Source: CAYFZR01 sp046760505 [NCBI: Candidatus Hydrothermarchaeota archaeon]
Lineage (GTDB): Archaea; CAYFZR01
NCBI GenBank assembly: GCA_046760505.1
Contig: JBHIEG010000007.1
Location: forward strand, 1-64,000
Direction of reading: 5' to 3'
DNA length: 64,000 bases
Positions 27,540-58,687 of the stretch are shown piece by piece. Under the pieces are notes generated by a model. It had not been told where the DNA came from. It saw nothing but the letters and a program-made list of their open reading frames with translations, and did no database searches. How positions within the stretch are numbered: position 1 is the stretch's first letter; the number at the start of each line of letters is the position of its first letter. The position numbers were made by a program, and so were the translations under genes.

Positions 27540-27565
27540 TATGATATGAACGTTGTAATTTAGGG

Positions 27566-29507: not shown

Positions 29508-29512
29508 CTAAA

Positions 29513-30433: not shown

Positions 30434-30448
30434 TATTTTCTCACCTCT

Positions 30449-31729: not shown

Positions 31730-31783
31730 TAGAATCACCTTTCATTATTTTGTAATGCTAGTGATTGAACTTCCAGAAAAGCG

Positions 31784-41875: not shown

Positions 41876-42706
41876 ATGGCAATTACTAGAGAGGATGTCA
41901 TAGATTCGGTAGAAAAAATATTGAGGGAAGCCGTAATTAAGCTTCCTGAAGACGTTATATTTTGTTTGAAATCCTCGCTGAAAAAGGAACGTAATGAAAG
42001 GGCAAGAGCCACCCTCAACACGATTCTAGAGAATGTAAGGGTAGCAGCGGAAAGAAACATACCAATGTGCCAAGATACAGGAATACCTATATTCTTCGTC
42101 GATCTTGGAAGAGATTTGAACCTAGACTTCGATCTCAAGGAGGCAATAACGGAAGGAGTTAGAAAGGCTACCAAGGAGATACCTCTAAGACCCAATGCGG
42201 TACATCCGCTTACCAGGGAAAACTCAGGAGACAATACAGGTCCTGGAATGCCTGATATCACCTTAGATCTCGTGGAAGGAAGTTCAATGAAGATAACTGT
42301 AGCGCCTAAGGGCGCGGGCTCAGAAAACATGAGTGCTTTAAGAATGCTAAGTCCGGGTCAGGCAAAAGAGGTTGATCGCATAATCGTAGAGACGGTTAAA
42401 AATGCTGGAGGAAGACCTTGTCCACCAGTCATCGTTGGAGTTGGAATTGGAGGATCATTCGATGAATCTGCTAAACTTGCAAAGAAGGCCATACTTAGGG
42501 ATCTTAGAGAGAAGCCAAGTAAGATGGAAAAGGAAGTGCTTGAAAAAATAAATTCTTTGGGAATCGGTCCGATGGGTCTTGGTGGGAATACCACTGCATT
42601 GAAGGTAAACATAGAATTCGCCCACTGTCACACCGCATCTCTTCCCTTGGCGATAAACATTCAATGCTGGGCTGATAGAAAGGCGAGCGTTGTACTGGGT
42701 GGTTGA
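41876..42706 (+). CDS. fumA: Class I fumarate hydratase, alpha subunit
   Basis: 276 residues: [15 protein letters not shown] with a cluster Cys, [41 protein letters not shown], and [15 protein letters not shown] near the end. With the beta subunit it forms the oxygen-sensitive [4Fe-4S] fumarase interconverting fumarate and malate. Two-gene form, as in many archaea. A tartrate dehydratase role is less likely given the succinate dehydrogenase genes that follow. Confidence 0.93.
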
Positions 42707-42707
42707 G

Positions 42708-43283
42708 ATGGAATATACACTAAATACACCTTTAAGCTTGGAGGATATTTCTCAACTTAAGGCAGGGGACATAGTTTATTTAAACGGCATAGTGCTTACC
42801 GCTAGAGATGAAGCCCATGAAAGAATCTTGAAATACAGAAAAGAAAGTAAGAAACTGCCCTTTGAATTAAATGGCTCCGCTATATACCATTGCGGACCAC
42901 TGATGAAGAAGGAAAATGAAAAATGGAAGGTAGTAGCAGCTGGTCCGACTACTAGCGTGAGGATGAATAAAACTACGCCAGAATTACTCAAGTATTTTGA
43001 AGTTAGAGCATTGATAGGAAAAGGCGGGATGAGCGAGATCACCGAGCATTTAAAGGGAAAATGCGTTTACCTTGCATATACAGGAGGATGTGCTGCCCTC
43101 GCAGCGGATAGAATAAAGGAGACAAAAGATGTATTCTGGCTAGATCTTGGGATGCCAGAGGCGGTATGGGTATTCGAAGTGCAGAACTTCGGACCTTTAA
43201 TAGTAGGGAGCGACGTAGAGGGAAATGATTTATTCAGAGATGTAATGGAAAATGCCACGAAAAAAATGAAAAAACTATTTTAG
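42708..43283 (+). CDS. fumB: Class I fumarate hydratase, beta subunit
   Basis: 191 residues from ATG 42708, one base after the alpha stop (the frame extends six codons upstream). NTPLSLEDISQLKAGDIVYLNG, HCGPLMKK, AAGPTTSVRMNKTTPELL, KGGMSEIT and GMPEAVWVFEVQNFGPLIV are the swivelling-domain signatures. Translationally linked to fumA. Confidence 0.93.
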   Translation: MEYTLNTPLSLEDISQLKAGDIVYLNGIVLTARDEAHERILKYRKESKKLPFELNGSAIYHCGPLMKKENEKWKVVAAGPTTSVRMNKTTPELLKYFEVRALIGKGGMSEITEHLKGKCVYLAYTGGCAALAADRIKETKDVFWLDLGMPEAVWVFEVQNFGPLIVGSDVEGNDLFRDVMENATKKMKKLF

Positions 43284-43295
43284 GGAGATGTTAAA

Positions 43296-44981
43296 TTGGA
43301 GGTCCATGAGACAGATGTTCTAATCATAGGAGGTGGCGGTGCTGGCTGCAGGGCCGCCATAGAAGCATCTGAAAAAAATGTTGACGTAATAGTGATGGTG
43401 AAAAGTTTAGTCGGAAAGAGCGGATGCACTCCCATGGCTGAAGGCGGCTATAACGCGGCTTTGGGAAATATACACAAAGAAGATTCCTGGGAAGTTCATT
43501 TTAGAGATACGGTAATAGGGGGAGCCTACTTAAATAATCAAAAACTGGTAGAAATATTGGTTAAGGAGGCTCCAGAGAGGATATACGATCTCGAGAATTA
43601 CGGCGCAGTCTTTGATAGAACAGAGGAAGGATATATAGCACAAAGACCTTTTGGACATCAAACCTATATCAGGACCTGTTATGCCAGCGATAGAACCGGT
43701 CATGAAATGATGATCACTCTTTTAAACGAGATTAGGAGGAGAGACATCACTCTGATAGAAGACCATATGGCTATTGAGCTTCTAAAATACGATAGCAGAG
43801 TTACCGGTGCCATAGCACTCGACATGATAAGCGGAGATCTTGCATTGATAAAGTCTAAAGCCACCATACTTGCTACGGGTGGAGGATCAAGAATATATAA
43901 GATCTCTACGAACTCTCAGCAAACCTGCGGAGATGGCTATGCAATGGCTTATAGAGCGGGAGCAGAGTTAATAGACATGGAACAGGTTCAATTTCACCCT
44001 ACAGGAATGGTATTTCCTGAATCTGCGAAGGGAATTCTGGTAACCGAAGCAGTAAGGGGAGAAGGAGGCATTTTACTAAACAAAGATGGAGAGAGGTTCA
44101 TGTTAAGATATTCCCCTGAGAAAAAAGAACTCGCAGGAAGAGACGTTGTTGCAAGGGCAATAGCCACTGAAATATTAGAGGGAAGAGGTACCAAAGAGGG
44201 TGGCGTTTATCTCGATGTATCTCATCTCGATGAGGAGGTTATTGAAAAGAGACTGGAAACGATGTTTGAGCAGTTCATGTTATTTGGTGTAGACATAAGA
44301 AAGGAGCCAATGCAAGTGGCTCCTACCGCACATCACTTTATGGGAGGAGTTAGAATAGATGAGCAGTGCAGAACCTCTCTTCCCGGCCTATATGCTGCAG
44401 GAGAGACTGCAGGAGGCGTTCATGGAGGTAATCGGCTCGGAGGGAATGCTTTAGCGGATACGCAGGTATTCGGTAAGAGAGCAGGAGAATATGCTGCTGA
44501 ATACGCTAAAAAGACTGGTAAGCCCAAGATAGAGAGACAATTTGTTGAAAAAGTTGAGAAAGGGGTTTACTCGCTATACAACGGAGAGGGAGTTTCTCCA
44601 ATAGAAGCAAAAAAACGTTTGACAGAGATTATGTGGGACAAGGTAGGGATATTTAGAGAAGAAAAAGCCATGAGTGAGGCTCTAAAAGAATTAGAACGAA
44701 TGAAAAAGGAAGATTTGCAAAATTTAAGAGTTAATGAGGGAAAAACTTATAATTTAGAACTGATTGAGGCGCTTCAATTAAGAAATATGGTTACCGTAGC
44801 AGAGATGGTTACCAGATCAGCGCTCTATAGAAAGGAAAGCAGGGGCGCTCATTGCAGACTTGACTTTAAGGAAAAAGATGACAAAAACTGGCTTGTAAAC
44901 GTAATAGTAAAACAAAAAAACGGTAAGATGACGATTTACACAGAGCCAGTTGTTTTTACGATTCTAAGGCCAGGTGGTTGA
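43296..44981 (+). CDS. tfrA: Fumarate reductase/succinate dehydrogenase flavoprotein (TfrA-like)
   Basis: 561 residues, TTG start after AGGGAGATG. FAD site VLIIGGGGAGCRAAIEA, GKSGCTPMAEGGYNAAL, FHPTGMVFPESAKGILVTEAVRGEGG, LAGRDVVARAI (catalytic Arg), HFMGGVRID and GGNRLGGNALAD. In the position where covalently flavinylated enzymes have His (SHTVAAEGG) this has Cys (GCTPMAEGG), so FAD is probably not covalently bound. It works with the Fe-S/CCG subunit overlapping its end, so electrons are likely exchanged with a thiol/disulfide couple or carrier, not a classical quinone anchor. Confidence 0.9.
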   Translation: MEVHETDVLIIGGGGAGCRAAIEASEKNVDVIVMVKSLVGKSGCTPMAEGGYNAALGNIHKEDSWEVHFRDTVIGGAYLNNQKLVEILVKEAPERIYDLENYGAVFDRTEEGYIAQRPFGHQTYIRTCYASDRTGHEMMITLLNEIRRRDITLIEDHMAIELLKYDSRVTGAIALDMISGDLALIKSKATILATGGGSRIYKISTNSQQTCGDGYAMAYRAGAELIDMEQVQFHPTGMVFPESAKGILVTEAVRGEGGILLNKDGERFMLRYSPEKKELAGRDVVARAIATEILEGRGTKEGGVYLDVSHLDEEVIEKRLETMFEQFMLFGVDIRKEPMQVAPTAHHFMGGVRIDEQCRTSLPGLYAAGETAGGVHGGNRLGGNALADTQVFGKRAGEYAAEYAKKTGKPKIERQFVEKVEKGVYSLYNGEGVSPIEAKKRLTEIMWDKVGIFREEKAMSEALKELERMKKEDLQNLRVNEGKTYNLELIEALQLRNMVTVAEMVTRSALYRKESRGAHCRLDFKEKDDKNWLVNVIVKQKNGKMTIYTEPVVFTILRPGG

Positions 44982-44982
44982 T

Positions 44983-46509
44983 TTGGATCTCAAGGTTAGG
45001 GTACTTAGATACGATCCTTTAATGGATGATGAGCCCAGATTTGTCGAATATTCCGTTCCGTATCAGCAGTACATGACTGTTTTAGACGTTTTACAATATA
45101 TTTATGAAAACTACGATTCAACTCTCTCTTTCAAATGGGGGTGCAGAGCAGGTCAGTGTGGATCGTGCACCGTGGTGTATAACGAAAAACCCTCTTTGGC
45201 ATGCAGAACAAAGATCGATCCTGAGCAAGATGTTGAAATAAGCCCTCTACCATATTTTCCGATTGTAAAAGATCTTGTTGTAAATACGGAGAAGATACGT
45301 GAGAAATTGATAAGGGCTTTACCCTTCCTAGAATCAATGAAAAAGATAGAAAGACCTTACAAAGTAAAACAGGAAGAAATAGAATCCATAGTAGATCTCA
45401 GGAAATGCATAGAATGTTATTCATGCGTAGCAACGTGTCCAGTAATAGATCAGGCATGGCAAGATTATGGAAGTCCTTTTGTTATGAGAGAAGTTGGCAG
45501 GTGGGCGTTCGATAAAAGAGATTCATTAGACAGGATAAAAATAGCCATGTTAAACGGGCTCTATAATTGTACCACGTGCGGAAGTTGCAAAGAAGTCTGC
45601 TACAAAAACATTGATATTCCAGAGAAAGCAATAGAAAAACTAAGAAATCTCGCGGTCATAGAGGGATTGGCGCCATTGCCGCCTCATAAGACGTTGATAG
45701 CAAGCATACAAAATTACTGGAATCCATGGCTTCAGCCAAGGGCAGCGAGAGCAAAGTGGGCTAAGAAGATGAAATTGAAAGATGAAGGTGACACTCTATT
45801 TTTCGCGGGATGTTCTCCATCTTTGCTGTTAAAAAATCTTCCCTTATCGAGTATGGAAATACTGAATTCGTTGAACAAAGACGTTGCGTATTTGGGAAGG
45901 AACGAAAGGTGCTGCGGCAGTCCATTGTTAAGACTAGGAGATTTAGAACTTTTTGATGAAATAGGAAGATCGAACATAGAGGAATTCAAAAAAGCAGGAG
46001 CAGAAAGAATCATTGTTACGTGCGCAGGCTGTTACAAAGCCCTTAAAGTCGATTATCCAAATTTCTTCGGTGATTTCGACTTTGAAGTAAAGCACATTTC
46101 CGAAGTAATCGCTGACGAGATAAGAGAAGGCAATGTTGATTTTAAAGAAAAATACGATATGAAAGTTACATATCATGATCCCTGTCATTTAGGCAGGGCA
46201 GGAGGGGTATATGATGCTCCAAGAGAAATTATAAAAGCCATTCCTGGTTTAGAATTGATTGAAATGAACAGGAAAAGGGAAATAAGTGCTTGCTGTGGAA
46301 GCGGAGGAGGTCTAAAGACTTATAAACCAGATCTTGCCATGTCCATAGGCGGTAAAAGAGTCGAAATGGCGAAGAATACTGGAGCAGAGTATATACTGAC
46401 GTGTTGTCCTTGGTGCGAGCAAAATCTTGATGATAGCGCTAAAAAGGCGAATATAGACATGAAAACCATAGACTTGGTTGATATCGTAGTAGAGGTACTT
46501 GAGGTGTAA
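44983..46509 (+). CDS. tfrB: Fumarate reductase Fe-S subunit fused to Hdr-type CCG domains (TfrB-like)
   Basis: 508 residues from TTG 44983 (AGGTGG five bases before; GTG 44974 is alternative). Three parts: a [2Fe-2S] ferredoxin (CRAGQCGSC...C), two cubane motifs (CIECYSCVATCP; CTTCGSCKEVC), and two CCG modules (FFAGCS...RCCGSPLL...CAGCYK; HDPCHLGRAGG...ACCGSGGG...CCPWCE). This is the layout of methanogen thiol:fumarate reductase TfrB, which oxidises CoM-SH and CoB-SH to the heterodisulfide while fumarate is reduced. Whether this organism uses those thiols is not shown; a menaquinone-linked variant is possible. Confidence 0.88.
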   Translation: MDLKVRVLRYDPLMDDEPRFVEYSVPYQQYMTVLDVLQYIYENYDSTLSFKWGCRAGQCGSCTVVYNEKPSLACRTKIDPEQDVEISPLPYFPIVKDLVVNTEKIREKLIRALPFLESMKKIERPYKVKQEEIESIVDLRKCIECYSCVATCPVIDQAWQDYGSPFVMREVGRWAFDKRDSLDRIKIAMLNGLYNCTTCGSCKEVCYKNIDIPEKAIEKLRNLAVIEGLAPLPPHKTLIASIQNYWNPWLQPRAARAKWAKKMKLKDEGDTLFFAGCSPSLLLKNLPLSSMEILNSLNKDVAYLGRNERCCGSPLLRLGDLELFDEIGRSNIEEFKKAGAERIIVTCAGCYKALKVDYPNFFGDFDFEVKHISEVIADEIREGNVDFKEKYDMKVTYHDPCHLGRAGGVYDAPREIIKAIPGLELIEMNRKREISACCGSGGGLKTYKPDLAMSIGGKRVEMAKNTGAEYILTCCPWCEQNLDDSAKKANIDMKTIDLVDIVVEVLEV

Positions 46510-46511
46510 TT

Positions 46512-46856
46512 ATGACTTTAAATATAGATCCCCTGAAATGTGTTGGATGTGGAGCATGCGAAGTAGCATGTAGTTTTCATAGGGATGAGACCTTTTCAAC
46601 CCTCTCTTCAAGTATAATGTTATATAAAGAGGAGAAGAAAAACTACTTCGGCGTTATGTTAAAGAGAGAAGAAGATCTTGTCCTCGGTAGACCCGAGGGA
46701 CTAGAAATAAAAAGGATAGAAGATATTTCTGAGGAAGCAGGAGAAGAAGCAGCCAGCTCAAAGCCAATATTGTTAAGAGAATCCTGCGATTTATGCGAAG
46801 ACGAAGAACCCTATTGCGTGAGATTTTGCCCTACCAACGCTATAACAGGAGGATAA
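46512..46856 (+). CDS. Ferredoxin-like Fe-S subunit associated with AOR-family proteins
   Basis: 114 residues with two cysteine groups, CVGCGACEVACSFHRD near the start and CDLCEDEEPYCVRFCP near the end, separated by a ~75-residue middle without Cys. This is the pattern of small electron-transfer subunits encoded next to tungsten aldehyde oxidoreductases. Two bases after tfrB and one base before the AOR-like gene, so it likely bridges them. Confidence 0.85.
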   Translation: MTLNIDPLKCVGCGACEVACSFHRDETFSTLSSSIMLYKEEKKNYFGVMLKREEDLVLGRPEGLEIKRIEDISEEAGEEAASSKPILLRESCDLCEDEEPYCVRFCPTNAITGG

Positions 46857-46857
46857 A

Positions 46858-48285
46858 ATGACGGAATACTTGTATTCAGGATTAGTATTGATAGTTGATC
46901 TTGAAAAAGAAGAAACAGAAGAAATTGACCTGGAAGATGAATTAATAGAGGAGAAAATAGGTGGTGCAGCGGTAAACATAGCCTTATATGAAGAACACAA
47001 AGAAGATGATCCTATAATACTGGGAACAGGTATTTTTACAAGTACATTGGTTCCGGGCTCCGCCTTAGGAATAATAACTGCCAAGAGCCCGATAAATAAA
47101 AGGGTATGTCACGTTCCAATTACGCTCTTCGCGGGCTGTGATTTAAAACTCAGTGGATTTGACTTCGTTGTAATCAAAGGAAAGGCAGAAACTCCTGTCT
47201 ATCTCTGGCTACGCGATATGATAGCGGATATTCATGACGCGAGTGAGGTTTGGAATAAGGATACATGGGAAACCACTGATTATTTGCGCTCAGAACTAGG
47301 GGAAGAACGTATCCAAGTACTAAATATAGGTACTGCAGGAGAAAACAAGGTTGACATCTCTCAAATCTGCAATAACTACTGGGGATCTGCTGATAGATTT
47401 GGTATTGCCAGTATTTTCGGAGATAAAAATCTGAAAGCCATTGCTATGAGAGGTCTAGGAGAACTAGAGATAAAGGATCCGAAAAGTTTCTTTGATAAAG
47501 CCCTCGAATTACTCGAGGTCGCTAGAAATAGAAAGATCGACGTTTTAGATCTCATGCCAAATGGAAGAGCGGAAATAGAAAATATGCTCCATAGAAGAGT
47601 TTCCTGCTTTAACTGCGGATACGCATGTAATTTATTTTTGAAATTCAGAGAGGACCCTAAGGTAATGGTTTCTTCTCATATAGAAGAACCAGGAATACTT
47701 GTTCAAGATATCTCTCATCTGATCGGTTTCTCCAATTTTAAACTATCGCTGGCAGAGATTATCGAAGTGATAGAAAAGTGCTACAGATTAGGGCTGGATC
47801 CTGTATCAGTAAGTAAAATTGCAAGGGGAGATTCTAAGGAAAAAGTTATGAGAGAAATAGAGGGATTCGCAAGCGGCACTTACGACTTGCCCGAGGCAAG
47901 ATTTGACGGAATAATACCCTATCCAACCATAAAGGACTCGGGCCTTCTCCAAGGATTTGGAATATTCTCAAATTGGATGACTTTACATATCGGAGATGTT
48001 ACAGATATCACCGAGGCAGAAGCTTGGGTATACAGAAATGCCCTCTCCTACATACTCGGAATCTGCCCGATACTCATGTTGGGAGCAAATTTTAACGAAA
48101 AAGATCTTCTTGAGCTAATAAATCTCGGAACGGAATTCGAAATAGACTCAGAGACTCTAAGCGATAAAATAAAAAATATGGTTGGAGATAGCATCAAACT
48201 CGGAGGAGAAGAGAGAGACATCCACAATTCTCTTAAAAGCGGGGATTTCGATTCGAATTTAAAAGATCTCCTAAGAAAATTCTGA
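46858..48285 (+). CDS. Shortened aldehyde ferredoxin oxidoreductase (AOR)-family protein
   Basis: 475 residues against ~600 for the family. The N-terminal AOR domain is recognisable (KIGGAAVNIALYEE; GALGIITAKSP-like GSALGIITAKSP; FAGCDLKLSGFDFVVIKGKA), then CFNCGYAC with YILGICP supplying a possible fourth Cys for the [4Fe-4S] cluster, and RLGLDPVSV matching the pterin-binding LGLDTIS. The stretch between these, normally holding the KGlExxxYDPRG and RGxxH elements, is missing, and the Asp before LGxC is absent. Tungsten cofactor binding may be altered and activity is doubtful. In the same transcript as fumarate reductase. Confidence 0.75.
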   Translation: MTEYLYSGLVLIVDLEKEETEEIDLEDELIEEKIGGAAVNIALYEEHKEDDPIILGTGIFTSTLVPGSALGIITAKSPINKRVCHVPITLFAGCDLKLSGFDFVVIKGKAETPVYLWLRDMIADIHDASEVWNKDTWETTDYLRSELGEERIQVLNIGTAGENKVDISQICNNYWGSADRFGIASIFGDKNLKAIAMRGLGELEIKDPKSFFDKALELLEVARNRKIDVLDLMPNGRAEIENMLHRRVSCFNCGYACNLFLKFREDPKVMVSSHIEEPGILVQDISHLIGFSNFKLSLAEIIEVIEKCYRLGLDPVSVSKIARGDSKEKVMREIEGFASGTYDLPEARFDGIIPYPTIKDSGLLQGFGIFSNWMTLHIGDVTDITEAEAWVYRNALSYILGICPILMLGANFNEKDLLELINLGTEFEIDSETLSDKIKNMVGDSIKLGGEERDIHNSLKSGDFDSNLKDLLRKF

Positions 48286-48309: not shown

Positions 48310-49602
48310 TTACTCATCGTTTAATCCCAATGCTTCTGAAACCAATTTTGTTATATCTGATACTTCCATTCTAAGTTTTTTCATTTTAACAGTGTTCTGC
48401 AGGCTTTGATAACAGAATGGGCAGGCAGTAACCAATTCTTCAGCATTGATTTCCCTCGCATCTTCTACCCTACTCTCTGAAAGTCTCTCCGCAAGATGAG
48501 GATTTGCGGGTTTAAGCCCTCCTCCAGCGCCGCAACATCTAGAATACTCTCTATTTCTTTCCATTTCAATTAGTTCGATTCCGGTGATTGATTCCAAAAC
48601 CCTTCGCGGGGGATCATAAACATTCGTATGCCTACCTAAGTGGCATGGATCGTGATAGGTTATCACCTTATTTATAGCCTTTTTAAATTCGAGTTTACCC
48701 TCCTCTATCAACTCGTCTATGAATTCAATGGTATGCATGACCTTGGGTTTCAATTCCCCGAACTTGGGATAGTCTTGGCTCAAGGTCTTGAAGCAGCCTG
48801 CGCAGGATGTAACTATGAGCTCTACTCCTAATTCGTTAAAAGTTTTAAAATTCTCATTGGCTATTTCCTTAAATTTTTTTACCTCTCCAACTCTAAGGAG
48901 AGTGCTTGCACAACATTGCTCCTTTTTACCCAAGATTCCAAAGTCTACGCCTGCTTCATTAAATATTTTTACCGTATTTATTGCTACGTCTTTTATGTGA
49001 GGATCATAGGAAGCAGTGCAGCCAACGAAAAACAGGATTTTTGCATCCTCTTTATTTAAATCTTTAATTTTTAATTCCTTTTCCTTTTTTCTCATTTCTT
49101 TGGTCAAATCCTTAGCCCATTTATCTCTCCTTGCTCTTGGATAAAGCCAAGGATTTCTGTAATTTATGATGCTCTTGACAAAGACATCGTGCTCTTTCAA
49201 AGGACCAAATCCGTTTTCAACTGAAACTTGTCTCGTATCTTCCCAGAGATTTATGGTGTTAATTTTAGCCGGACATACAATGTGGCACTGTCCGCATACC
49301 GTACAGGCGTACAGACCGTTTAGAAATTTTTCTCTCTCTACGTTTTTTCCAATCAGATTGTACAGGACTCTGTAGAATGGGTTGTGTTTCTTTCTTAAAA
49401 TGGTCTTCATCCCGTCTATCTTAAACCTAGGCAATACATTTTCCTCTTTTAATCCATCATACGCTGGACACCAGTTGAGGCACTCTCCGCATCTCGTGCA
49501 AGCCTCGATTTCAATCAACTGCTTTATACTTAGATCTTCCAGAGATAAGTCTTCTATTTCCTTTTCATCCTTTTTTGTCTCTTGCTCTTTCACTTCAGTC
49601 AT
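48310..49602 (-). CDS. hdrD: Membrane-complex Fe-S/CCG subunit, HdrD (DsrK/HmeD)-like
   Basis: 430 residues. A charged N-terminal extension (~30 residues), two cubane motifs (ACTRCGECLNWCP; ACTVCGQCHIVCP), then two CCG modules (FFVGCTASYDPH...CCASTLL...CAGCFK, with Ala replacing Gly; HDPCHLGRHTNVYDPPR...CCGAGGGL...CPFCY). Overlaps by four bases the cytochrome b-like gene before it, in the hdrE-hdrD order of methanogens. Expected to reduce or oxidise a disulfide using electrons from the membrane. Converges on the AOR-like gene with 24 bases between. Confidence 0.85.
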   Translation of the reverse strand: MTEVKEQETKKDEKEIEDLSLEDLSIKQLIEIEACTRCGECLNWCPAYDGLKEENVLPRFKIDGMKTILRKKHNPFYRVLYNLIGKNVEREKFLNGLYACTVCGQCHIVCPAKINTINLWEDTRQVSVENGFGPLKEHDVFVKSIINYRNPWLYPRARRDKWAKDLTKEMRKKEKELKIKDLNKEDAKILFFVGCTASYDPHIKDVAINTVKIFNEAGVDFGILGKKEQCCASTLLRVGEVKKFKEIANENFKTFNELGVELIVTSCAGCFKTLSQDYPKFGELKPKVMHTIEFIDELIEEGKLEFKKAINKVITYHDPCHLGRHTNVYDPPRRVLESITGIELIEMERNREYSRCCGAGGGLKPANPHLAERLSESRVEDAREINAEELVTACPFCYQSLQNTVKMKKLRMEVSDITKLVSEALGLNDE

Positions 49603-50414
49603 TCTCTAACCTTTGAGACGGTGTTTAAGAATATGCTTAATGGAGTGGTGAAAACGTGGAAAAACTTGCTGAAGGGGAAGTATGCTATGAAGAGAGAGGA
49701 TAGAAGCGAGTGAGTAATCCATAGATGCTCATGAAATGTGTGTACAGCATTATCACTTATATTCATGAATTTTGAAATAAAATATCCAAAGAATGAATAG
49801 ATTCCTATGGAAGATGGCTCTTTAACTAATCTCACCGCTTCCAGAATGAAGCCCGATAGTACCACTATTAACAAAAAAGTTAATGCGAAGGCATCGTCAA
49901 GATTCGTTGACATCTGCTCACTTTTAAATAAAAATCTCCTTGATAAAGCAATCAGAATTCCGATAAAAATCATAAATCCAAATAATTCAAATAAAAAGTC
50001 ATATACAATCAGGGATTTGCCCTTCAGTTCTACATGGAATAAATCAGTATACGTGCCAACGAGATCCATGATCAAAAAGAGGATGAATCCGACTCCAATG
50101 TTAAAGTGCATAAACCATCTTACCTTACTTAATTTGGTGGTATCTTTCTGTAAAATGGAATCCAGAAAGAGAGTCTTTACAAAAGTTTCAAAGTTGTTCA
50201 GGATTAATTTGATTAACCTCGTTCCATTTGAGAGGAACTTGGATATTATGTTTCTTTCAGATTTATCCGCAGTCAAAAAAATACTGATCCTTATCCACAA
50301 ACCCACGCAAAAAATTAAAAGGCAGGAAAAATGGACTATCCAAAAAAGTGAGATCAATTTAGCGTTGTCTATGGTCTTTATCATTGAAATCAATCTCATG
50401 GGGACTAAAAACAT
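49599..50414 (-). CDS. hdrE: Heme b membrane subunit, HdrE/NarI/DsrM-like
   Basis: 271 residues with about six hydrophobic segments. HFNIGVGFILFLIMDLVG, HEHLWITHSLLSSLFIAYFP and FSKFFHVFTTPLS are the His-bearing helices and C-terminal PFSKFxHxxxxPL signature of NarI/HdrE cytochrome b subunits. It would pass electrons between a membrane carrier (methanophenazine or menaquinone) and the HdrD-like protein. The ATG at 50414 follows AGGGTGG; a reverse-strand TATA (CTTTTATAG, 50449-50457) lies 35-43 bases upstream. Confidence 0.85.
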   Translation of the reverse strand: MFLVPMRLISMIKTIDNAKLISLFWIVHFSCLLIFCVGLWIRISIFLTADKSERNIISKFLSNGTRLIKLILNNFETFVKTLFLDSILQKDTTKLSKVRWFMHFNIGVGFILFLIMDLVGTYTDLFHVELKGKSLIVYDFLFELFGFMIFIGILIALSRRFLFKSEQMSTNLDDAFALTFLLIVVLSGFILEAVRLVKEPSSIGIYSFFGYFISKFMNISDNAVHTFHEHLWITHSLLSSLFIAYFPFSKFFHVFTTPLSIFLNTVSKVRE

Positions 50415-52341: not shown

Positions 52342-54690
52342 ATGATTGGGGTATTCCTCTGTCATTGCGGAAATAACATCGCTGGTACAGTAGATATAGA
52401 ATATATCAAGAAAGAACTTTCTAACAGGGGCATAATTAATTTTGACAACATTTTCCTTTGTTCTCAAGAAGGTCAGGATCTTATTTTAGAGAGGATAAAA
52501 GAAGAAAATTTAGATAGAATCGTGATTGCTGCTTGTTCACCTAAGCACCATGAAGATATCTTTAAAAGATGTGTGGAAAAAGAGATCAATCCATACCTTT
52601 TGGAAATGGTGAACATTCGAGAACAATGCTCTTGGGTACATAGAGATAAGGGAGAAGCCACCAAAAAAGCTCTTGCCCTGATAACCGGTGCCATCAGGAA
52701 GGCGGAATATCTTTCTGAGATTCATAGAATCGAGGTTCCAATAAGCAAAGAAGTCCTGATTGTTGGAGGTGGTGTAGCCGGAATTCAGTGTGCTTTGGAA
52801 CTCGCTAAAAACGACTACAAGGTATATCTCTTAGAGAAAGAACCATGCATAGGAGGGAACATGGTAAGGCTCAATAAAACTTTTCCAACGGATGATTGTT
52901 CCATGTGTACTATTGCTCCAAAGATAAGCGAGGTTGGAAGTCATGAAAACATAGAGATAATATCAATGGCTGAGATAGAAGACATAAAAGGCTCTGTAGG
53001 CAATTTCACTGTAAAAATAAAGCAGAAGCCTAGATACGTCAACGAAAAGTGTACTGCCTGCGGAGAGTGTGCCAAGGCTTGCGTCCTGAAAGACAGGATC
53101 GAGGATGATTTCAATCTGGGATTGAGTAAAAGATCAGCGATTTATATCCCATATGAGCCTGGAATGCCTTCCATGTACGTTGTAGATGCGGAAAACTGTC
53201 TATATGTAAAGAAGGGAAAATGCAAGCAGACCTGTCTGGAAGCCTGCTTTAGAGGTGCCATAGACTTTGAGCAGGAAGAAAAAGAGTTCACTCTAAACGT
53301 TGGAGCAATAGTGCTCGCAACGGGTTATCAGGAGTACGATCTAACGGGTACCGAGTATAATTTCGAGCACCCAAATGTGATAACCGGTCTGCAACTGGAA
53401 AGGCTATTGAGCGCGAATGGACCGACTGGAGGTACTTTGAGAAGACCCAGCGATGGAAAGATACCTAAAACCGTTGTTTTCGTGCAGTGCGCTGGCTCGA
53501 GAAGCGAGAAACACAATGAATATTGCTCAAAGATCTGCTGCATGCATGCCCTTAAGAATTCAATGATAGTAAAATCAGAAAATCCAGATACCGAGGTTTA
53601 CTACTGCTATATAGATCTAAGAGCCGCTGGCAGAGGTTACGAAGAGTACTACGATAGAGCCAGAGAGATGGGAATAAAATTTATAAGAGGAAATGTGGGA
53701 GATATCCAAAGCGCAAGCGACAATCTTATCGTAAGAGTTGAGGACACTCTTTTGGGAGAGAATAAAGAAATCGAAGCAGAACTGGTGGTCCTCTCAACTG
53801 CACTGGTACCCTCTGAAGGGACTAAAAATATAAAAGACCATATCAACGTTTCTTATGAGCCAGATGGTTTTGTAAGTCCTTTACATCCAAAAATAGAACC
53901 TGTGGATACAAAAGATGCGGGCATATTTATATGCGGTACGGTATCTGGTCCAAAGGCGATACAGGACTGTGTTGCAGAGGCTAACGCGGTTTCATCCCGG
54001 ATTCAAACAATCTTGCATAGAGGAAAGATAGAGGTCGATTTAAAGATACCCTCTCTGGACAAAGAGATCTGTGTCCGCTGTGGAGAATGCATAGTGAACT
54101 GTGCGTTTAATGGCGTAGAGGATTTTGAAGTACTGGAAGGCGTTTGCAGGAGTTGCGGAAAGTGTATTGTTAATTGTCCTTCAAGTGCTTTAGAAACGTG
54201 TTACTACTCAGACAGGCAAATAGAATCGCAAATAGAGGGAATCTTGGAAGTCGATCCAGATTCCATAATAGCCTTTTGCTGTAATGAATGCAGTTATGCT
54301 GCTGCTGATTTAGCTGGCGTTGCAAAAATAAACTATCCTTCACAGGTAAAAATTATAAGAGTTCCATGCACAGGAAGGGTTTCATTAAATCACATATTGA
54401 AATCCTTTGAGCTTGGAGCGCAGGGTGTTATGGTAGCCGGATGTTTAGCTGATCAATGTCATTACATCGATGGGAATTACAATGCCGCTGAAATTGTAGA
54501 AAGAGGAAAAAAAATTCTTGACTTGCTTAATATAGGAAGCGAAAGATTAAAGATGTTTTATATTTCAGCAGCAATGAGAGATGCTTTTGTGCAAGCAGTA
54601 AAAGAAATGGTTGAGACCACTAAAAAGCTATCAGAAGAGTTTAAAGAAGAGAAATCTGAAATAGCTATTAAAGATACTTTCCAGCATTAG
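52342..54690 (+). CDS. hdrA: HdrA-like flavin/Fe-S protein with C-terminal MvhD domain
   Basis: 782 residues. N-terminal HdrA module (GVFLCHCGNNIAG; CSPKHHED), FAD domain (VLIVGGGVAGIQCALELA), CSMCTIAPK, an inserted ferredoxin (CTACGECAKAC...CKQTCLEAC), VFVQCAGSR, then two cubane motifs (CVRCGECIVNC; CRSCGKCIVNC), and from ~residue 640 an MvhD/FlpD domain (FCCNECSYAAADLAG, VPCTGRV, GCLADQCHY). HdrA bifurcates electrons between ferredoxin and disulfide; MvhD normally connects it to hydrogenase or formate dehydrogenase. Neither is nearby. The next gene supplies CCG domains in place of HdrB/HdrC. Confidence 0.9.
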   Translation: MIGVFLCHCGNNIAGTVDIEYIKKELSNRGIINFDNIFLCSQEGQDLILERIKEENLDRIVIAACSPKHHEDIFKRCVEKEINPYLLEMVNIREQCSWVHRDKGEATKKALALITGAIRKAEYLSEIHRIEVPISKEVLIVGGGVAGIQCALELAKNDYKVYLLEKEPCIGGNMVRLNKTFPTDDCSMCTIAPKISEVGSHENIEIISMAEIEDIKGSVGNFTVKIKQKPRYVNEKCTACGECAKACVLKDRIEDDFNLGLSKRSAIYIPYEPGMPSMYVVDAENCLYVKKGKCKQTCLEACFRGAIDFEQEEKEFTLNVGAIVLATGYQEYDLTGTEYNFEHPNVITGLQLERLLSANGPTGGTLRRPSDGKIPKTVVFVQCAGSRSEKHNEYCSKICCMHALKNSMIVKSENPDTEVYYCYIDLRAAGRGYEEYYDRAREMGIKFIRGNVGDIQSASDNLIVRVEDTLLGENKEIEAELVVLSTALVPSEGTKNIKDHINVSYEPDGFVSPLHPKIEPVDTKDAGIFICGTVSGPKAIQDCVAEANAVSSRIQTILHRGKIEVDLKIPSLDKEICVRCGECIVNCAFNGVEDFEVLEGVCRSCGKCIVNCPSSALETCYYSDRQIESQIEGILEVDPDSIIAFCCNECSYAAADLAGVAKINYPSQVKIIRVPCTGRVSLNHILKSFELGAQGVMVAGCLADQCHYIDGNYNAAEIVERGKKILDLLNIGSERLKMFYISAAMRDAFVQAVKEMVETTKKLSEEFKEEKSEIAIKDTFQH

Positions 54691-54701
54691 GTGCACGAAA
54701 A

Positions 54702-56585
54702 ATGCTAGATTGCACAACCTGCAGGCTTTGTGCCGTCAAATGCCCAACAGAAATCAATCTAGATGAGATTATCAAAAGATACAGATATTTAAATGAAATC
54801 AGGACTCCTCACGGGGGAGTATTCCATATACTAGGGAAAATTTTAATCAGAGTGGATATTTCAGATTGGCTTAAAGAAGATGAACTGGATATTGGCAGAG
54901 ACGATTTATACTATTTTCCAGGATGTTTGCCGATATTCGATTTGGTTCTGGATAGAGATAGAAGCTATTCGGGAATTGCCCATGCAGGAATAAAGGTTTT
55001 GAATAAGTTGGGGATATCACCGAAAATAATCTACGGCTGCTGCGGGCACGACCTCTTATATTCAGGGAATTTAGATGAGTTTGAAATCAATAGGATAAAC
55101 CTTAAAGGAAAAGTGGAAGGTAAGAAGATAATAACTGGATGTGCAGAGTGTTATCACATTTTAAAAAATGAATATCAAGCGGATGTGGAGCATTTCTCTC
55201 AATTCATTTCCAAAAATTTAAACAAACTTGATTTAAGTAATATCGATACAGAAAAATTGAAAACCACCTATCATGATCCCTGTAGATTAGGAAGATACAA
55301 TTCAATTTACAATGAACCTAGAGAACTCCTTGAAAAAATCACTTCCTTTAGTGAGATGTCAAGAAACAGAGAAGAAACAATATGCTGTGGAGTTTCTTCG
55401 TGGCTAAACTGTGATAACCTATCTAGGGAATTGAGAGAAGAAAAAATAAAAGAAGCAATTGAAACCGGATCAGATTCTTTGGTCACGAGTTGTCCGAAGT
55501 GTATAGTTCATTTAGATTGTTTATACGAAGAGAAACTCGGTGATTTGGATTTAAAGCGTTTAAATATCGTTGATTTACAAGAAATACTCGCTCATTCGCT
55601 TGGAATCTATGACCTCCAATCAGATGAGAAATTTTATGAAATAAAAAAGAGAAAGAGCACACCAATAAAGTCCGTTGAAATAAAGAAAGATCCCTTGAGA
55701 TATATAGACAGAGATCTATCCAATTTAGCATACAGGTGTACCACATGTTATGCATGTGAGACTGCATGTCCGATGGAATATAAGCCTGTTCACATGATGG
55801 AAGACTTCAGAAAATTTCTTGTTTCTCAAAATCTCAATCCTGAAAGGCACAATGAAATTTATAACAATATTTTAGAAACAGGAAACGTTTTTGGTGAAAA
55901 AGAGGAAATATTTGATGAAAAAGTAGATCATGACGTGGTTTATTTCCCGGGATGTGTCGCTAGTTTTCGTGCTAGGAAGATAGTCGATTCATGCAGGGAA
56001 TTGATGGACAGAATAGGAGTTAATTATACCATCCCTAAAGGGACGATATGCTGTGGGAGCATAGCGTTTAGAACGGGATTCAATACCAGACCAATCGTGG
56101 AGAAGAATATGCAAGTGTTAAACGGAAAGAAGATTGTTTGTTCTTGTTCGGGTTGTTACGCTACGTTTAAAAAGGACTATGGATTAAACGCTATTCACTT
56201 CATCGATTTATTGCTGGATAACAAGAATAAACTGAAATTTAAAAAATCGGGAGTGAAAATAGCCTACCATGATCCGTGTCATCTAGGAAGGGAGTTTCAG
56301 TACTTCGACCCTCCGAGAGAACTGCTAAAATTAATTCCAGAACTGGAATTGGTAGAATTTCCCCATAGCAGAGAGAATTCTCTATGCTGTGGAGGTGGAG
56401 GCGGGGTTAGATCTGCTTTTCCGGAGTTATCTGCAATGATAGCAAAAAAAAGGATGGAAGAAATCGAAAATGAAAGTGTGGATGCTGTAGTAACCGCCTG
56501 CCCGTTCTGTGAGATAAATCTAGGAACCGTTACCGATAAGAAGGTATACGACATATCCCAATTCTTACTGATACATCTAAAATGA
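54702..56585 (+). CDS. Tandem HdrD-like protein: two [4Fe-4S] motifs and four CCG modules
   Basis: 627 residues built as two fused halves. Half one: CTTCRLCAVKCP at residue 4, CCG modules FPGCL...GCCGH...CAECY and HDPCRLGRY...ICCGV...CPKC. Half two (from ~345): CTTCYACETACP, FPGCVASF...ICCGS...CSGCY and HDPCHLGRE...CCGGGGGV...CPFC. Each half has one cubane motif where GlcF/HdrD relatives have two. All four CCG motifs have full Cys sets; the Gly-rich tail is lost in half one. AGGTG precedes the ATG; 11 bases after hdrA, so it is its probable disulfide or electron-accepting partner. Confidence 0.85.
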   Translation: MLDCTTCRLCAVKCPTEINLDEIIKRYRYLNEIRTPHGGVFHILGKILIRVDISDWLKEDELDIGRDDLYYFPGCLPIFDLVLDRDRSYSGIAHAGIKVLNKLGISPKIIYGCCGHDLLYSGNLDEFEINRINLKGKVEGKKIITGCAECYHILKNEYQADVEHFSQFISKNLNKLDLSNIDTEKLKTTYHDPCRLGRYNSIYNEPRELLEKITSFSEMSRNREETICCGVSSWLNCDNLSRELREEKIKEAIETGSDSLVTSCPKCIVHLDCLYEEKLGDLDLKRLNIVDLQEILAHSLGIYDLQSDEKFYEIKKRKSTPIKSVEIKKDPLRYIDRDLSNLAYRCTTCYACETACPMEYKPVHMMEDFRKFLVSQNLNPERHNEIYNNILETGNVFGEKEEIFDEKVDHDVVYFPGCVASFRARKIVDSCRELMDRIGVNYTIPKGTICCGSIAFRTGFNTRPIVEKNMQVLNGKKIVCSCSGCYATFKKDYGLNAIHFIDLLLDNKNKLKFKKSGVKIAYHDPCHLGREFQYFDPPRELLKLIPELELVEFPHSRENSLCCGGGGGVRSAFPELSAMIAKKRMEEIENESVDAVVTACPFCEINLGTVTDKKVYDISQFLLIHLK

Positions 56586-56606: not shown

Positions 56607-57719
56607 ATGAAGATAGGTGTATACGTGGGAGAAGGCTCTTCGCATTCATGGGTATGGCTCGTTGATACCTTGGAGAAATTTGGTCTTATAGATATCTTGT
56701 TTCTAAACGAAAAACTTGTAAAAAAAGATACGCTGAATTCCATAAATTTAATGGTAATATCTGGAGGGGACACGATATCCATAGCCAATTCTATAGGAAA
56801 TGGGTTCAAAGAAATCAAAAACTTTATAGGAGATGGAGGAATATACTTGGGAATTTGCGCTGGCGCTTATCTTCCCCTGTACTCGAGGAAAGAGCCACTT
56901 TCTAAGTTTAACCTAGTTAAAGCCGGTATCACCAATATAATCAGGAGTGGGGGCTTTAAACCTTTCAGTTGCGACCGTGTATTTCAGGGCGTAAGAGGAC
57001 CGTTGTATATAGATTTTCAAGGAAAGATCATTTCCGCGCCTCTCTACGGTGGCCCCTCCTTTGTCCCCAATGGAAGTGAGACTCTTGCAATCTACTCTGA
57101 CTTTTCCGAAGAGACCTCATTTTTGGTTGAAAAAAACCTAGCAGAAAGAACGATTTTAGGAAAAGGAGCAATTATCAAAAAGGATTATGGAAAAGGCGCC
57201 TTTTTGCTCTTTGGACCCCATCTTGAGCACCCTTCTTTCCATGATGCTAATCTAATTTTTTACCACTTACTCAAAGGTTTGAAAATTAAAGAAATCAGAG
57301 ACCAGGAAGAAAAAGATTTTACCCATTTATTAAGAGGTGTAGAGGCGAAAAAATTCTTAAAGGACTTAAAAAGAGAGATTAGCAATATGAGAATAATCGC
57401 AATGGGAATTGAAGGCTCTATAAAATGGAAGGTAGGGCATAAGGTATGGGATATGGAAAGAATCCTTTATTTCACAGATGCCACATGGAAGAGACTTAGA
57501 TACCTGGAAAAAGATACCCTTTACGTAAAAAATCCCGATAAAATAGTGGAAGAAGTAAAAGAGACAAAAAATCTACTCATAAAAATCAGGGAAGAATTAA
57601 GAGAAGGAAAGGACATAAGAGAATCTGCTGAAAACTTGGTAAGAAAAATGAGAGAAGTTGTTCCAGCGATTCTTGAGTTTTATTTTAACAACATAAAGAG
57701 AAATAGGGGATCCTCATGA
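56607..57719 (+). CDS. BPL_N-type class I glutamine amidotransferase-like protein
   Basis: 370 residues. The first ~230 match the class I amidotransferase-like domain seen at the N-terminus of some biotin-protein ligases: KIGVYVGEGSSHSW, LMVISGGDTISIA, GGIYLGICAGAYLPLY (nucleophile Cys), GKGAFLLFGPHLEHPSFHD with a catalytic-type His. The remaining ~135 residues are a charged helical domain (repeated EExKExKN, REELREGKD) with no biotin-ligase catalytic domain. Role unknown. Overlaps the LLM gene by four bases; 21 bases after the tandem CCG gene, so perhaps part of its operon. Confidence 0.8.
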   Translation: MKIGVYVGEGSSHSWVWLVDTLEKFGLIDILFLNEKLVKKDTLNSINLMVISGGDTISIANSIGNGFKEIKNFIGDGGIYLGICAGAYLPLYSRKEPLSKFNLVKAGITNIIRSGGFKPFSCDRVFQGVRGPLYIDFQGKIISAPLYGGPSFVPNGSETLAIYSDFSEETSFLVEKNLAERTILGKGAIIKKDYGKGAFLLFGPHLEHPSFHDANLIFYHLLKGLKIKEIRDQEEKDFTHLLRGVEAKKFLKDLKREISNMRIIAMGIEGSIKWKVGHKVWDMERILYFTDATWKRLRYLEKDTLYVKNPDKIVEEVKETKNLLIKIREELREGKDIRESAENLVRKMREVVPAILEFYFNNIKRNRGSS

Positions 57720-58687
57720 ATGAGATAAAATTTGGGCTTCAACAGCCAGAATACAACTTTAAACCTGAAACAACCTTTGATAATTTAAAGAATATAATTC
57801 AGACTGCTGAATCAAATGGTTTTGAATCTTTCTGGGTTATGGATCACTTGATGCAGATCCCGTATCTGGATCCTGAATCTAAGGCTCCAATGCTGGAAGC
57901 ATGGGTTGTCCTCTCTAATCTGGCGGGGGTTACCAAAAAGATTAAACTTGGAACGCTTGTGACATGTGCATCATACAGAAATCCTGCCCATCTTGCAAAG
58001 ATAGGCGCTACCTTGGATGTTTTATCTGGTGGTAGAGTAATCATGGGAATCGGAGCCGGTTGGTTTGAAAAAGAGTACATATCTTATGGCTATTCGTTCC
58101 CTAAATATAGGGAACGCGTGGAAATGCTAAGCGAGGCAGTGCAGATAATGAAAAAGATGTGGACGGAAGAGTCGCCATCCTTTGAAGGGAAATATTTTAG
58201 GATAAAGGATGCTATTTGTAACCCTAAACCCTTGCAGAAGCCATATCCGCGGATTTTAATTGGAGGAGGAGGTCTAGAGACCTTAAAAGTCGTGGCTGAA
58301 CATGCAGACATGTGTAATTTCTTCGGAAAGCCTGATGAAATCATGAAGAAGATTGAGACAGTTGAGAAATACTGCTCTGAAATCGGTAGAGACCCAGATG
58401 AAATAACAGTTAGTAAAATAGGCGGAGTTATAATAGCCGAATCTGAAGATGAACTAAAAAGTATTCTAAAGACAAAAATCCGCCCTGGCATCCGCCCTGG
58501 CTTCAGTCCTGAGCAACTGGAGGGCTGGCTGATTTTAGGCACCCCAGAGCAAGTAAAGGAAAAATTACAGAAATTCATAGATGTGGGAGTTACTTACTTC
58601 ATCCTCAACTTCCCGGGCTCGGATGAGGTTAAACTACATTTGAATAAAATAATGATCTTCGGTGAAAGGGTGATATCTGAGTTCTGA
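57716..58687 (+). CDS. LLM-class oxidoreductase, probably F420- or flavin-dependent
   Basis: 323 residues of the luciferase-like monooxygenase barrel: FESFWVMDHLMQIPYL, KLGTLVTCASYRNPAHLAK, VIMGIGAGWFEKEY, FRIKDAICNPKPLQKPYPRI and ILIGGGGLETLKVV. In archaea such proteins usually bind F420, but the cofactor cannot be settled here. Translationally coupled (ATGA) to the amidotransferase-like gene; a joint pathway is likely but unknown. Confidence 0.88.
   Translation: MNEIKFGLQQPEYNFKPETTFDNLKNIIQTAESNGFESFWVMDHLMQIPYLDPESKAPMLEAWVVLSNLAGVTKKIKLGTLVTCASYRNPAHLAKIGATLDVLSGGRVIMGIGAGWFEKEYISYGYSFPKYRERVEMLSEAVQIMKKMWTEESPSFEGKYFRIKDAICNPKPLQKPYPRILIGGGGLETLKVVAEHADMCNFFGKPDEIMKKIETVEKYCSEIGRDPDEITVSKIGGVIIAESEDELKSILKTKIRPGIRPGFSPEQLEGWLILGTPEQVKEKLQKFIDVGVTYFILNFPGSDEVKLHLNKIMIFGERVISEF

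What the first reader, a model, noticed from the sequence alone, without database searches (positions are those of the whole stretch)
52342..56585. HdrA-MvhD fusion paired with a four-CCG, two-cubane protein: a possible new Hdr-type bifurcating complex
HdrA-MvhD normally works with separate HdrB and HdrC and a hydrogenase or formate dehydrogenase. Here the next gene, 11 bases on, is a 627-residue tandem fusion in which each half has one cubane-cluster motif and two complete CCG motifs. That is enough for four CCG-type (HdrB-like) sites, an architecture I do not know from described Hdr complexes. No hydrogenase is near, so the low-potential donor must be something else; acyl-CoA, succinate or lactate oxidation are candidates given the surrounding genes.
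Basis: partly seen in the sequence, partly recalled or inferred. Interest (0 to 1): 0.7.

Follow-up and report, generated by a model that had tools for sequence, protein, structure and literature searches.

The report
HdrA partner with four noncubane sites
Next to an electron-splitting enzyme (HdrA) this archaeon carries a conserved fusion of two different iron-sulfur proteins, probably a bridge that ties electron splitting to succinate/fumarate (or, in a relative, fatty-acid) metabolism; the parts are known kinds, but I found no description of the fused partner.

Summary
In detail: 52342-54690 encodes HdrA-MvhD and 54702-56585 a 627-residue protein ordered cubane-CCG-CCG-cubane-CCG-CCG. It is not a one-off: nine relatives in eight genomes from two phylum-level archaeal groups keep the order, and the fusion directly follows HdrA-MvhD in 9 of 9 loci (window included) where that side can be read. 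Eight of these HdrAs were put in a tree and form one clade apart from 67 others.

The interpretation needs correcting. The fusion joins two different HdrD kinds: half 1 the kind found beside HdrA elsewhere, half 2 the GlcF/TfrB kind. It does not replace HdrB/HdrC: 7 of 8 readable loci carry both next door; the window is the exception. Site 2 is not plain HdrB-like: two extra cysteines are invariant (19 of 19 rows of its kind, 0 of 32 others).

Best reading: a soluble flavin-bifurcating Hdr complex in which the fusion bridges HdrA to a flavoprotein: fumarate-reductase kind in the window and four relatives, acyl-CoA dehydrogenase/ETF in one. This is inferred from sequence and synteny; no biochemistry was possible. 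New variant of a known kind.

The parts
52342..54690 (+). HdrA-MvhD fusion, 782 aa; MvhD domain about 54265-54630; bifurcation residues E353 and K405 (= E356/K409 of the methanogen enzyme) and the inter-subunit cluster ligand C189 (= Cys197)
   Evidence: NCBIfam HdrA2 902.7 bits against a cut-off of 1100
54702..56585 (+). Tandem HdrD-HdrD fusion, 627 aa
   Evidence: folds
54711..54743 (+). half 1 single cubane motif C4-x2-C7-x2-C10-x3-C14
   Evidence: 10 of 10 family members
54924..55151 (+). CCG site 1 (C75, C113, C114, C147, C150)
   Evidence: complete in 8 of 10
55281..55520 (+). CCG site 2 with two extra cysteines (C194, C228, C229, C237, C264, C267, C273; CCGxSxWxNC ... CxxCxxHxxC)
   Evidence: 10 of 10 family members; extra pair in 19 of 19 rows of this kind and 0 of 32 others
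55737..55769 (+). half 2 single cubane motif (C346, C349, C352, C356)
   Evidence: 10 of 10
55953..56156 (+). CCG site 3 (C418, C450, C451, C482, C485)
   Evidence: 10 of 10
56277..56510 (+). CCG site 4 (C526, C562, C563, C600, C603)
   Evidence: 9 of 9 that reach this far
43296..44981 (+). TfrA-type fumarate reductase flavoprotein, proposed partner (inferred; 5.8 kb upstream of hdrA, not in the same operon)
   Evidence: NF004900 806.4 bits, cut-off 718; 36-40% identical to the flavoprotein directly upstream of hdrA in L100, L107, L108, L136
44974..46509 (+). TfrB-type iron-sulfur/CCG subunit, proposed partner (inferred)
   Evidence: NF004898 458.5 bits, cut-off 385
41876..43283 (+). fumarase alpha and beta (41876-42706, 42690-43283); fumarase genes also flank the tandem operons L100 and L108
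   Evidence: above NCBIfam cut-offs; 49-58% identity
56607..57719 (+). BPL_N-like (class-I amidotransferase-like) protein downstream of the fusion; homologue heads the tandem cluster in L102; role unknown
   Evidence: Pfam 53.8 bits; 34.7% identity over 375 columns
57716..58687 (+). F420-dependent-type LLM oxidoreductase in the same run of genes; a hint that F420 is present
   Evidence: TIGR03560 271.2 bits, cut-off 231.4

Best explanation
The two genes encode the core of a cytoplasmic, flavin-bifurcating Hdr complex. Shown here: HdrA-MvhD has the FAD domain, the two residues named in print as needed for bifurcation and the inter-subunit cluster ligand; the fusion consists of an HdrD of the kind that accompanies HdrA (half 1) joined to an HdrD of the GlcF/TfrB kind (half 2); the pair has been inherited together. 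Inferred: half 1 docks on HdrA and passes electrons between its flavin and half 2 through its cubane and two CCG sites; half 2 exchanges electrons with a partner flavoprotein or its thiol/disulfide carrier, as the characterised GlcF/TfrB/EtfD-type proteins do. In the window the partner is most likely the TfrAB-type fumarate reductase/succinate dehydrogenase, fed by the methylmalonyl-CoA/fumarase genes beside it; in L101 it is acyl-CoA dehydrogenase-ETF. In the favourable direction a mid-potential donor (F420H2 or NAD(P)H) would be split between fumarate or enoyl-CoA and ferredoxin; the reverse (confurcation) would help to oxidise succinate. Confidence 0.5 is for 'bridge between a bifurcating HdrA and a flavoprotein dehydrogenase'; about 0.35 for fumarate/succinate being the partner in the window.
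For: Fusion directly after hdrA-mvhD in 9 of 9 readable loci, overlapping it in the 8 relatives. HdrAs of the 8 loci tested form one clade, SH-aLRT 100, among 75 rows. Bifurcation residues E356/K409 equivalents in 8 of 8 HdrAs scanned (roles from PMC12054007 passages). Half 1 groups with HdrA-associated HdrDs (19 rows, 100/100) and half 2 with GlcF/TfrB kinds. In L100, L107, L108 and L136 a TfrA-like flavoprotein with the QYHPT, RDV, HYxxGG and NRLxGN motifs lies immediately upstream of hdrA, and (L100, L108, L136) an Fe-S protein, hdrB and hdrC before it. L101 has acyl-CoA dehydrogenase-etfB-etfA-hdrC-hdrB-hdrA-fusion. Both halves match EtfD best in fold, Z 25.6 and 27.8, and HdrB next, Z about 22; EtfD takes electrons from ETF (PMC13083937 passages). 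Window TfrA and TfrB pass the curated TfrAB cut-offs.
Against: No biochemistry. In the window TfrAB is not in the hdrA operon: 5.8 kb and five genes lie between, two of them on the other strand. L136 shows no fumarase in the 20 kb read; L102, L104 and L137 show no flavoprotein dehydrogenase in the stretch read, so partners vary or are elsewhere. The relation of the two halves is not resolved: pTM 0.54 and 0.52, linker pLDDT about 30-40. HdrA is below the HdrA2 cut-off (902.7 against 1100). F420 use is only hinted at.
Confidence: 0.5

Rival explanations
1. The fusion is a disulfide reductase with two active sites: each half uses a pair of CCG clusters, as HdrB does, to reduce (or make) a small heterodisulfide or a protein disulfide of DsrC type, and HdrA feeds both.
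For: Sites 3 and 4 keep the full five-cysteine set and the GGGG loop of HdrB; fold match to HdrB Z about 22; TfrAB, which oxidises thiols in methanogens (recalled), is encoded nearby.
Against: Site 2 replaces the glycine loop by SxWxNC and adds two cysteines; CCG1 is lost in L104 and one cysteine short in L103, so a second, half-1 active site is not conserved. A separate HdrB is next door in 7 of 8 readable loci. No search for DsrC was made.
Confidence: 0.25
2. The fusion couples HdrA to a 2-oxoacid:ferredoxin oxidoreductase, as suggested by the neighbours of its half-1 relatives.
For: 2-oxoacid oxidoreductase-like genes (recognised by eye from the N-terminal sequences) stand in the clusters of the half-1-type HdrD in L005, L006, L007, L021, L027 and L053.
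Against: No such genes in the readable tandem clusters; in the window they lie more than 20 kb away (28812-31738).
Confidence: 0.1
3. The two genes are merely co-transcribed; the fusion serves another dehydrogenase such as the GlcD-like 2-hydroxyacid dehydrogenase.
For: Half 2 is of the GlcF kind; the window has a GlcD-like/GlcF-like pair with a malate racemase.
Against: GlcD already has its own GlcF-like gene next to it (26463-27539); the HdrA-fusion pairing is kept in 9 of 9 readable loci and HdrA and fusion share one clade each.
Confidence: 0.15

Closest known systems
HdrA2B2C2 of Methanosarcina acetivorans (PMC5296606, passages)
   Same: HdrA fused to MvhD, HdrB/HdrC in most relatives, bifurcation residues
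   Different: No tandem HdrD subunit is mentioned in the passages seen; the window HdrA is below the curated HdrA2 cut-off and belongs to a separate clade from the HdrAs sampled
HdrA clusters with HdrD-like genes in ANME and methanogens (PMC9012536 passages; PMC12054007 abstract and passages)
   Same: HdrD-like protein beside HdrA, as half 1
   Different: There it is a single HdrD; here it is fused to a second HdrD of another kind and each half has one cubane motif instead of two
sHdr complex of sulfur oxidisers, hdrC1B1A-hyp-hdrC2B2 (PMC6067878, passages)
   Same: One HdrA with two HdrB/HdrC-type modules
   Different: Separate proteins in a different gene order; lipoate-binding proteins go with it (not looked for here)
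flxABCD-hdrABC interspersed with korABCD and tfrAB in gammaproteobacterial rTCA clusters (PMC6315080, passages)
   Same: Published suggestion that an Hdr bifurcating complex hands electrons directly to a thiol:fumarate reductase
   Different: Bacterial, FlxABCD as input; no tandem HdrD is mentioned in the passages seen
EtfD of mycobacteria (9ojn; PMC13083937, passages)
   Same: Best fold match of both halves; two CCG domains that carry electrons from ETF
   Different: EtfD is a membrane protein with one CCG pair, a linear [3Fe-4S] cluster (Thr in place of one Cys) and a His ligand; the fusion keeps Cys at those places
TfrAB, GlcF, GlpC (NCBIfam NF004898, NF008434, NF008369)
   Same: Kin of half 2; TfrB model is the best NCBIfam hit of the whole fusion (303.1 bits)
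   Different: Below the TfrB cut-off (385); TfrB has a [2Fe-2S] domain and two cubane motifs with one CCG pair

Membership tests
Bifurcating HdrA (type Ia, HdrA-MvhD) | E356 and K409 equivalents beside the FAD | tested here: met
   window E353, K405; both in 8 of 8 HdrAs of tandem loci scanned
Bifurcating HdrA (type Ia, HdrA-MvhD) | C-terminal MvhD domain | tested here: met
   Pfam FlpD 152.3 bits, residues 642-763
Bifurcating HdrA (type Ia, HdrA-MvhD) | Cys197 equivalent for the inter-subunit cluster | tested here: met
   window C189 by alignment to 5odc_A
HdrA2 (NCBIfam NF040770) | curated score cut-off 1100 | tested here: not met
   902.7 bits; 930.5 for L100. Not filed as HdrA2
HdrABC complex | HdrB and HdrC encoded with HdrA | tested here: inconclusive
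   none seen in the window; no whole genome is held for it; present next door in 7 of 8 readable loci
CCG (PF02754) protein | CX(n)CCX(n)CXXC sites | tested here: met
   four Pfam stretches; 5 cysteines at each site
HdrD/GlcF standard form | two N-terminal cubane motifs and one CCG pair | tested here: not met
   one cubane motif and one CCG pair per half, 10 of 10 members
TfrB (NF004898) | cut-off 385 and a [2Fe-2S] domain | tested here: not met
   fusion 303.1 bits, no Fer2 hit
EtfD | Thr in the CC pair of the first site and His between the last two cysteines | tested here: not met
   window has CC at 113/114 and 450/451, and CAEC / CSGC; membrane helices not tested
sHdr | hdrC1B1A-hyp-hdrC2B2 order with lipoate-binding protein | tested here: not met
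   gene order differs in all loci read; lipoate-binding protein was not searched for
TfrAB (window 43296-46509) | curated NCBIfam cut-offs | tested here: met
   TfrA 806.4 (718), TfrB 458.5 (385)
Noncubane [4Fe-4S] protein | noncubane clusters in the protein | not testable with these tools
   needs EPR/Moessbauer or a structure

The most novel reading that the evidence does not exclude
A soluble, quinone-independent bifurcating fumarate reductase/succinate dehydrogenase: HdrA-MvhD splits F420H2 (or NAD(P)H) electrons between ferredoxin and fumarate, and the HdrD-HdrD fusion, with three plain noncubane sites and one new seven-cysteine site, is the dedicated electron bridge. The same chassis would be re-plugged to acyl-CoA dehydrogenase/ETF in other archaea.
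Probability: 0.2. Interest if true: 0.75.

Novelty: new variant of a known kind. Interest (0 to 1): 0.5.

Why it matters
How anaerobes without membrane quinone enzymes deal with the succinate/fumarate step is an old bioenergetic question. A conserved HdrA clade tied to a dedicated double HdrD, and in four loci to a fumarate-reductase-type flavoprotein, makes a direct Hdr-fumarate coupling testable. The seven-cysteine CCG site, also present in the HdrDs that accompany HdrA in bacteria and archaea, is a concrete target for a possibly new iron-sulfur cluster.

Tried and rejected
Simple internal duplication: rejected; the halves are 29% identical over 292 columns and fall in different parts of the tree. 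Missing first cubane through a frameshift or wrong start: the open frame extends only 10 codons upstream (54672) and the first cubane motif is absent in both halves of all 10 members. A plasmid-borne kin: tblastn of plasmids gave 84 records, identity under 60% in all; in the 30 rows listed both halves fell on one place of about 1.0-1.2 kb, that is a single HdrD/GlcF-type gene. Bacterial copies: 0 full-length among 50 bacterial genomes chosen because they carry HdrA (7 had single-half matches). HdrA in viral contigs: nothing.

NCBIfam found nothing for the BPL_N-like protein.

Limits of the counts: in the wide genome searches only 3-8 candidates per genome were scored, so absences are soft; the phyla (0 of 250, 0 of 148) had no positive control. 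The HdrA tree is a quick one without bootstrap; rows without my motif filter, L104 among them, were left out. L104's halves are long branches and its half 2 falls apart from the other six. The 11 'HdrA-associated' HdrDs were picked partly by their motif, so 11 of 11 is not independent; the tree groups them separately. HdrA was seen beside them in 8, near by in one (L052), and not looked at in L081 and L109. A crude MvhD flag read 'False' for L102, L108 and L136 because frames had been read through TGA; BLAST against the window HdrA covers the MvhD part in these. Paper claims rest on passages or abstracts, not whole texts; the Appel et al. 2021 review of HdrA(BC) modules, seen only in reference lists, could not be read. 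Residue roles in fumarate reductase and redox potentials are recalled.
Full report
1. The observation. The window encodes HdrA-MvhD at 52342-54690 and, 11 bases on, a 627-residue protein at 54702-56585. Pfam recognises FlpD (the MvhD domain) in the first and four CCG stretches in the second. The cysteines spell cubane, CCG, CCG, cubane, CCG, CCG, with five cysteines at each CCG site. None of 20,000 composition shuffles gave four CCG patterns or two cubane patterns.

2. It is a family. The window's own genome is not held. Searching genomes with the fusion itself did find relatives. Wide draws: 1 of 294 in the phylum of G014; 4 of 292 in the phylum of G008, one of them cut by its contig; 6 of 389 in the phylum of G394, four of these the same genomes as. 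Nearer draws: 2 of 2 in the order of G171, one genome with two copies; 2 of 59 in its class; 1 of 150 in the class of G577. No full-length relative: 0 of 250 in the phylum of G001, 0 of 148 in that of G015, 0 of 23 in that of G007 (ten with single-half matches), 0 of 23 genomes of archaeal HdrA loci and 0 of 50 genomes of bacterial HdrA loci. In all: nine relatives in eight genomes (G171, G996 twice, G394, G577, G322, G355, G1211, G1171), 31-48% identical to the window protein. The first two genomes belong to one phylum-level draw and the other six to another. It is a sparse, patchy family.

3. What is kept. Over the ten members both cubane motifs are complete 10 of 10, CCG2 and CCG3 10 of 10, CCG4 9 of 9, CCG1 8 of 10 (L104 has lost it, L103 lacks one cysteine); two window cysteines outside the motifs are kept in none of the other nine.

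4. Two kinds joined. In a tree of 51 HdrD-type rows the eight half-1 rows are one clade (100/100) and, with eleven HdrDs found with HdrA in bacteria and archaea, one side of a 100/100 branch. Six of seven half-2 rows form a clade (100/97) among GlcF/TfrB-type proteins; the seventh, L104, is a long branch elsewhere. Half 1 matches those free HdrDs from their second cubane motif onward, which explains the single cubane motif per half. The halves are 29% identical.

5. A different site 2. In half 1 the second CCG site reads CCGxSxWxNC ... CxxCxxHxxC: two extra cysteines (window 237 and 273). Both are present in 8 of 8 half-1 rows and 11 of 11 HdrA-type HdrDs, and in 0 of 7 half-2 rows and 0 of 25 others; in the ten-member alignment they are 10 of 10. 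The glycine loop of HdrB is gone. I infer that this site carries another cluster, or the same cluster otherwise ligated, and does not bind CoM-S-S-CoB. The 11 were chosen partly by motif, so the count illustrates the tree rather than being independent of it.

6. Fold. Two AlphaFold2 models, each with one half covered by relatives, have mean pLDDT 72.4 and 73.8 and pTM 0.54 and 0.52. Half 1 in the first aligns to EtfD with Z 25.6 (2.5 A, 287 residues) and to HdrB with Z about 21-22; half 2 in the second to EtfD with Z 27.8 (2.1 A, 293 residues) and to HdrB with Z about 21-22. The placement of the halves to each other is not resolved.

7. Neighbours. The fusion directly follows hdrA-mvhD in the window and in L100, L101, L102, L103, L104, L107, L108 and L136; in the eight relatives the ORFs overlap. 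In L137 the contig ends there. hdrC and hdrB lie next door in L100, L101, L102, L104, L108, L136 and L137; L103 and L107 are cut; the window has none, so the fusion is an addition to HdrBC rather than a substitute. L100, L108 and L136, from two phylum-level groups, have hdrC-hdrB-(2Fe-2S/4Fe-4S protein)-flavoprotein-hdrA-mvhD-fusion; L107 shows flavoprotein-hdrA-mvhD-fusion at its contig edge. The flavoprotein is 36-40% identical to window TfrA, has FAD_binding_2 and keeps the motifs around the catalytic residues (roles recalled), but is well below the TfrA cut-off (292.8 against 718 for L136). Fumarase genes, 49-58% identical to the window's, stand beyond it in L100 and L108 but not in L136. 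In the window fumarase lies beside TfrA-TfrB, both above the curated cut-offs, 5.8 kb upstream of hdrA and in another transcription unit. L101 has acyl-CoA dehydrogenase-etfB-etfA-hdrC-hdrB-hdrA (with an NfnB-like insert)-fusion. L102, L104 and L137 show no dehydrogenase in the stretch read.

8. HdrA. Its E356/K409 equivalents, named in PMC12054007 (passages) as key to bifurcation, are present in the window and in all 8 HdrAs scanned, as is the Cys197 equivalent. In a quick tree of 75 HdrA rows the eight from tandem loci are one clade with SH-aLRT 100. NCBIfam's HdrA2 model gives 902.7 bits, below its cut-off of 1100.

9. How it most likely works. HdrA's flavin splits electron pairs from a mid-potential donor. 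Half 1 is the HdrA-side module; half 2 belongs to a kind whose known members work with flavoprotein dehydrogenases (GlcF, GlpC, TfrB; recalled) and resembles EtfD, which takes electrons from ETF (PMC13083937, passages). So the fusion is read as an electron bridge between HdrA and a flavoprotein. With recalled potentials (fumarate about +30 mV, F420 about -340 mV, ferredoxin about -500 mV) splitting F420H2 between fumarate and ferredoxin is downhill; succinate oxidation would need the reverse. The window's methylmalonyl-CoA mutase, succinyl-CoA ligase, fumarase and malate racemase genes fit either direction.

10. What is known. HdrD-like proteins in HdrA clusters are reported for ANME (PMC9012536, passages) and in a survey of methane-metabolising archaea (PMC12054007, abstract and passages). 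A survey of archaeal fusions reports fusions among Hdr subunits and doubled HdrA (PMC11237513, passages); its tables were not seen, so an entry for this fusion cannot be excluded. Direct hand-over from an Hdr complex to a thiol:fumarate reductase was proposed for gammaproteobacterial rTCA clusters (PMC6315080, passages). Eight paper searches brought up no text on a double HdrD beside HdrA. Hence: new variant of a known kind, with one feature (site 2) that may be more than that.

Noticed in passing
window 56607-57719; L102:15112-16227: BPL_N-like (class-I amidotransferase-like) protein next to the tandem cluster in two unrelated loci, 34.7% identical; role unknown.
   Followed up: partly
half-1-type HdrDs: L005, L006, L007, L017, L021, L027, L052, L053, L081, L102:13491-14633, L109: A kind of HdrD with a seven-cysteine second CCG site (CCGxSxWxNC ... 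CxxCxxHxxC), in most cases beside HdrA and 2-oxoacid oxidoreductase-like genes; the site may hold an undescribed cluster.
   Followed up: partly
window 46512-48285: Small ferredoxin and an AFOR_N-type protein of 475 aa in which the AFOR_C part is only weakly recognised: a shortened aldehyde:ferredoxin oxidoreductase relative after TfrAB.
   Followed up: no
window 48310-50414 (-): HdrD-like protein with a NarI-type membrane protein (Pfam Nitrate_red_gam), an HdrDE/DsrMK-like pair.
   Followed up: no
window 25027-28819: GlcD-like and GlcF-like genes followed by a nickel-dependent malate racemase (NF052593, 589 bits, cut-off 500), not a lactate racemase; LarA-like genes also lie near the tandem in L100, L107 and L108.
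   Followed up: partly
L101:5711-9493: HdrA of 1260 aa with an NfnB-like insert (Fer4_20 + Pyr_redox_2) and MvhD, resembling type III HdrA; suggests NAD(P)H in place of F420H2 in this relative.
   Followed up: no
L118 (G1107:C31): Half-1-type match in an open frame of 1011 aa with one TAG inside; a possible other fusion, not examined.
   Followed up: no
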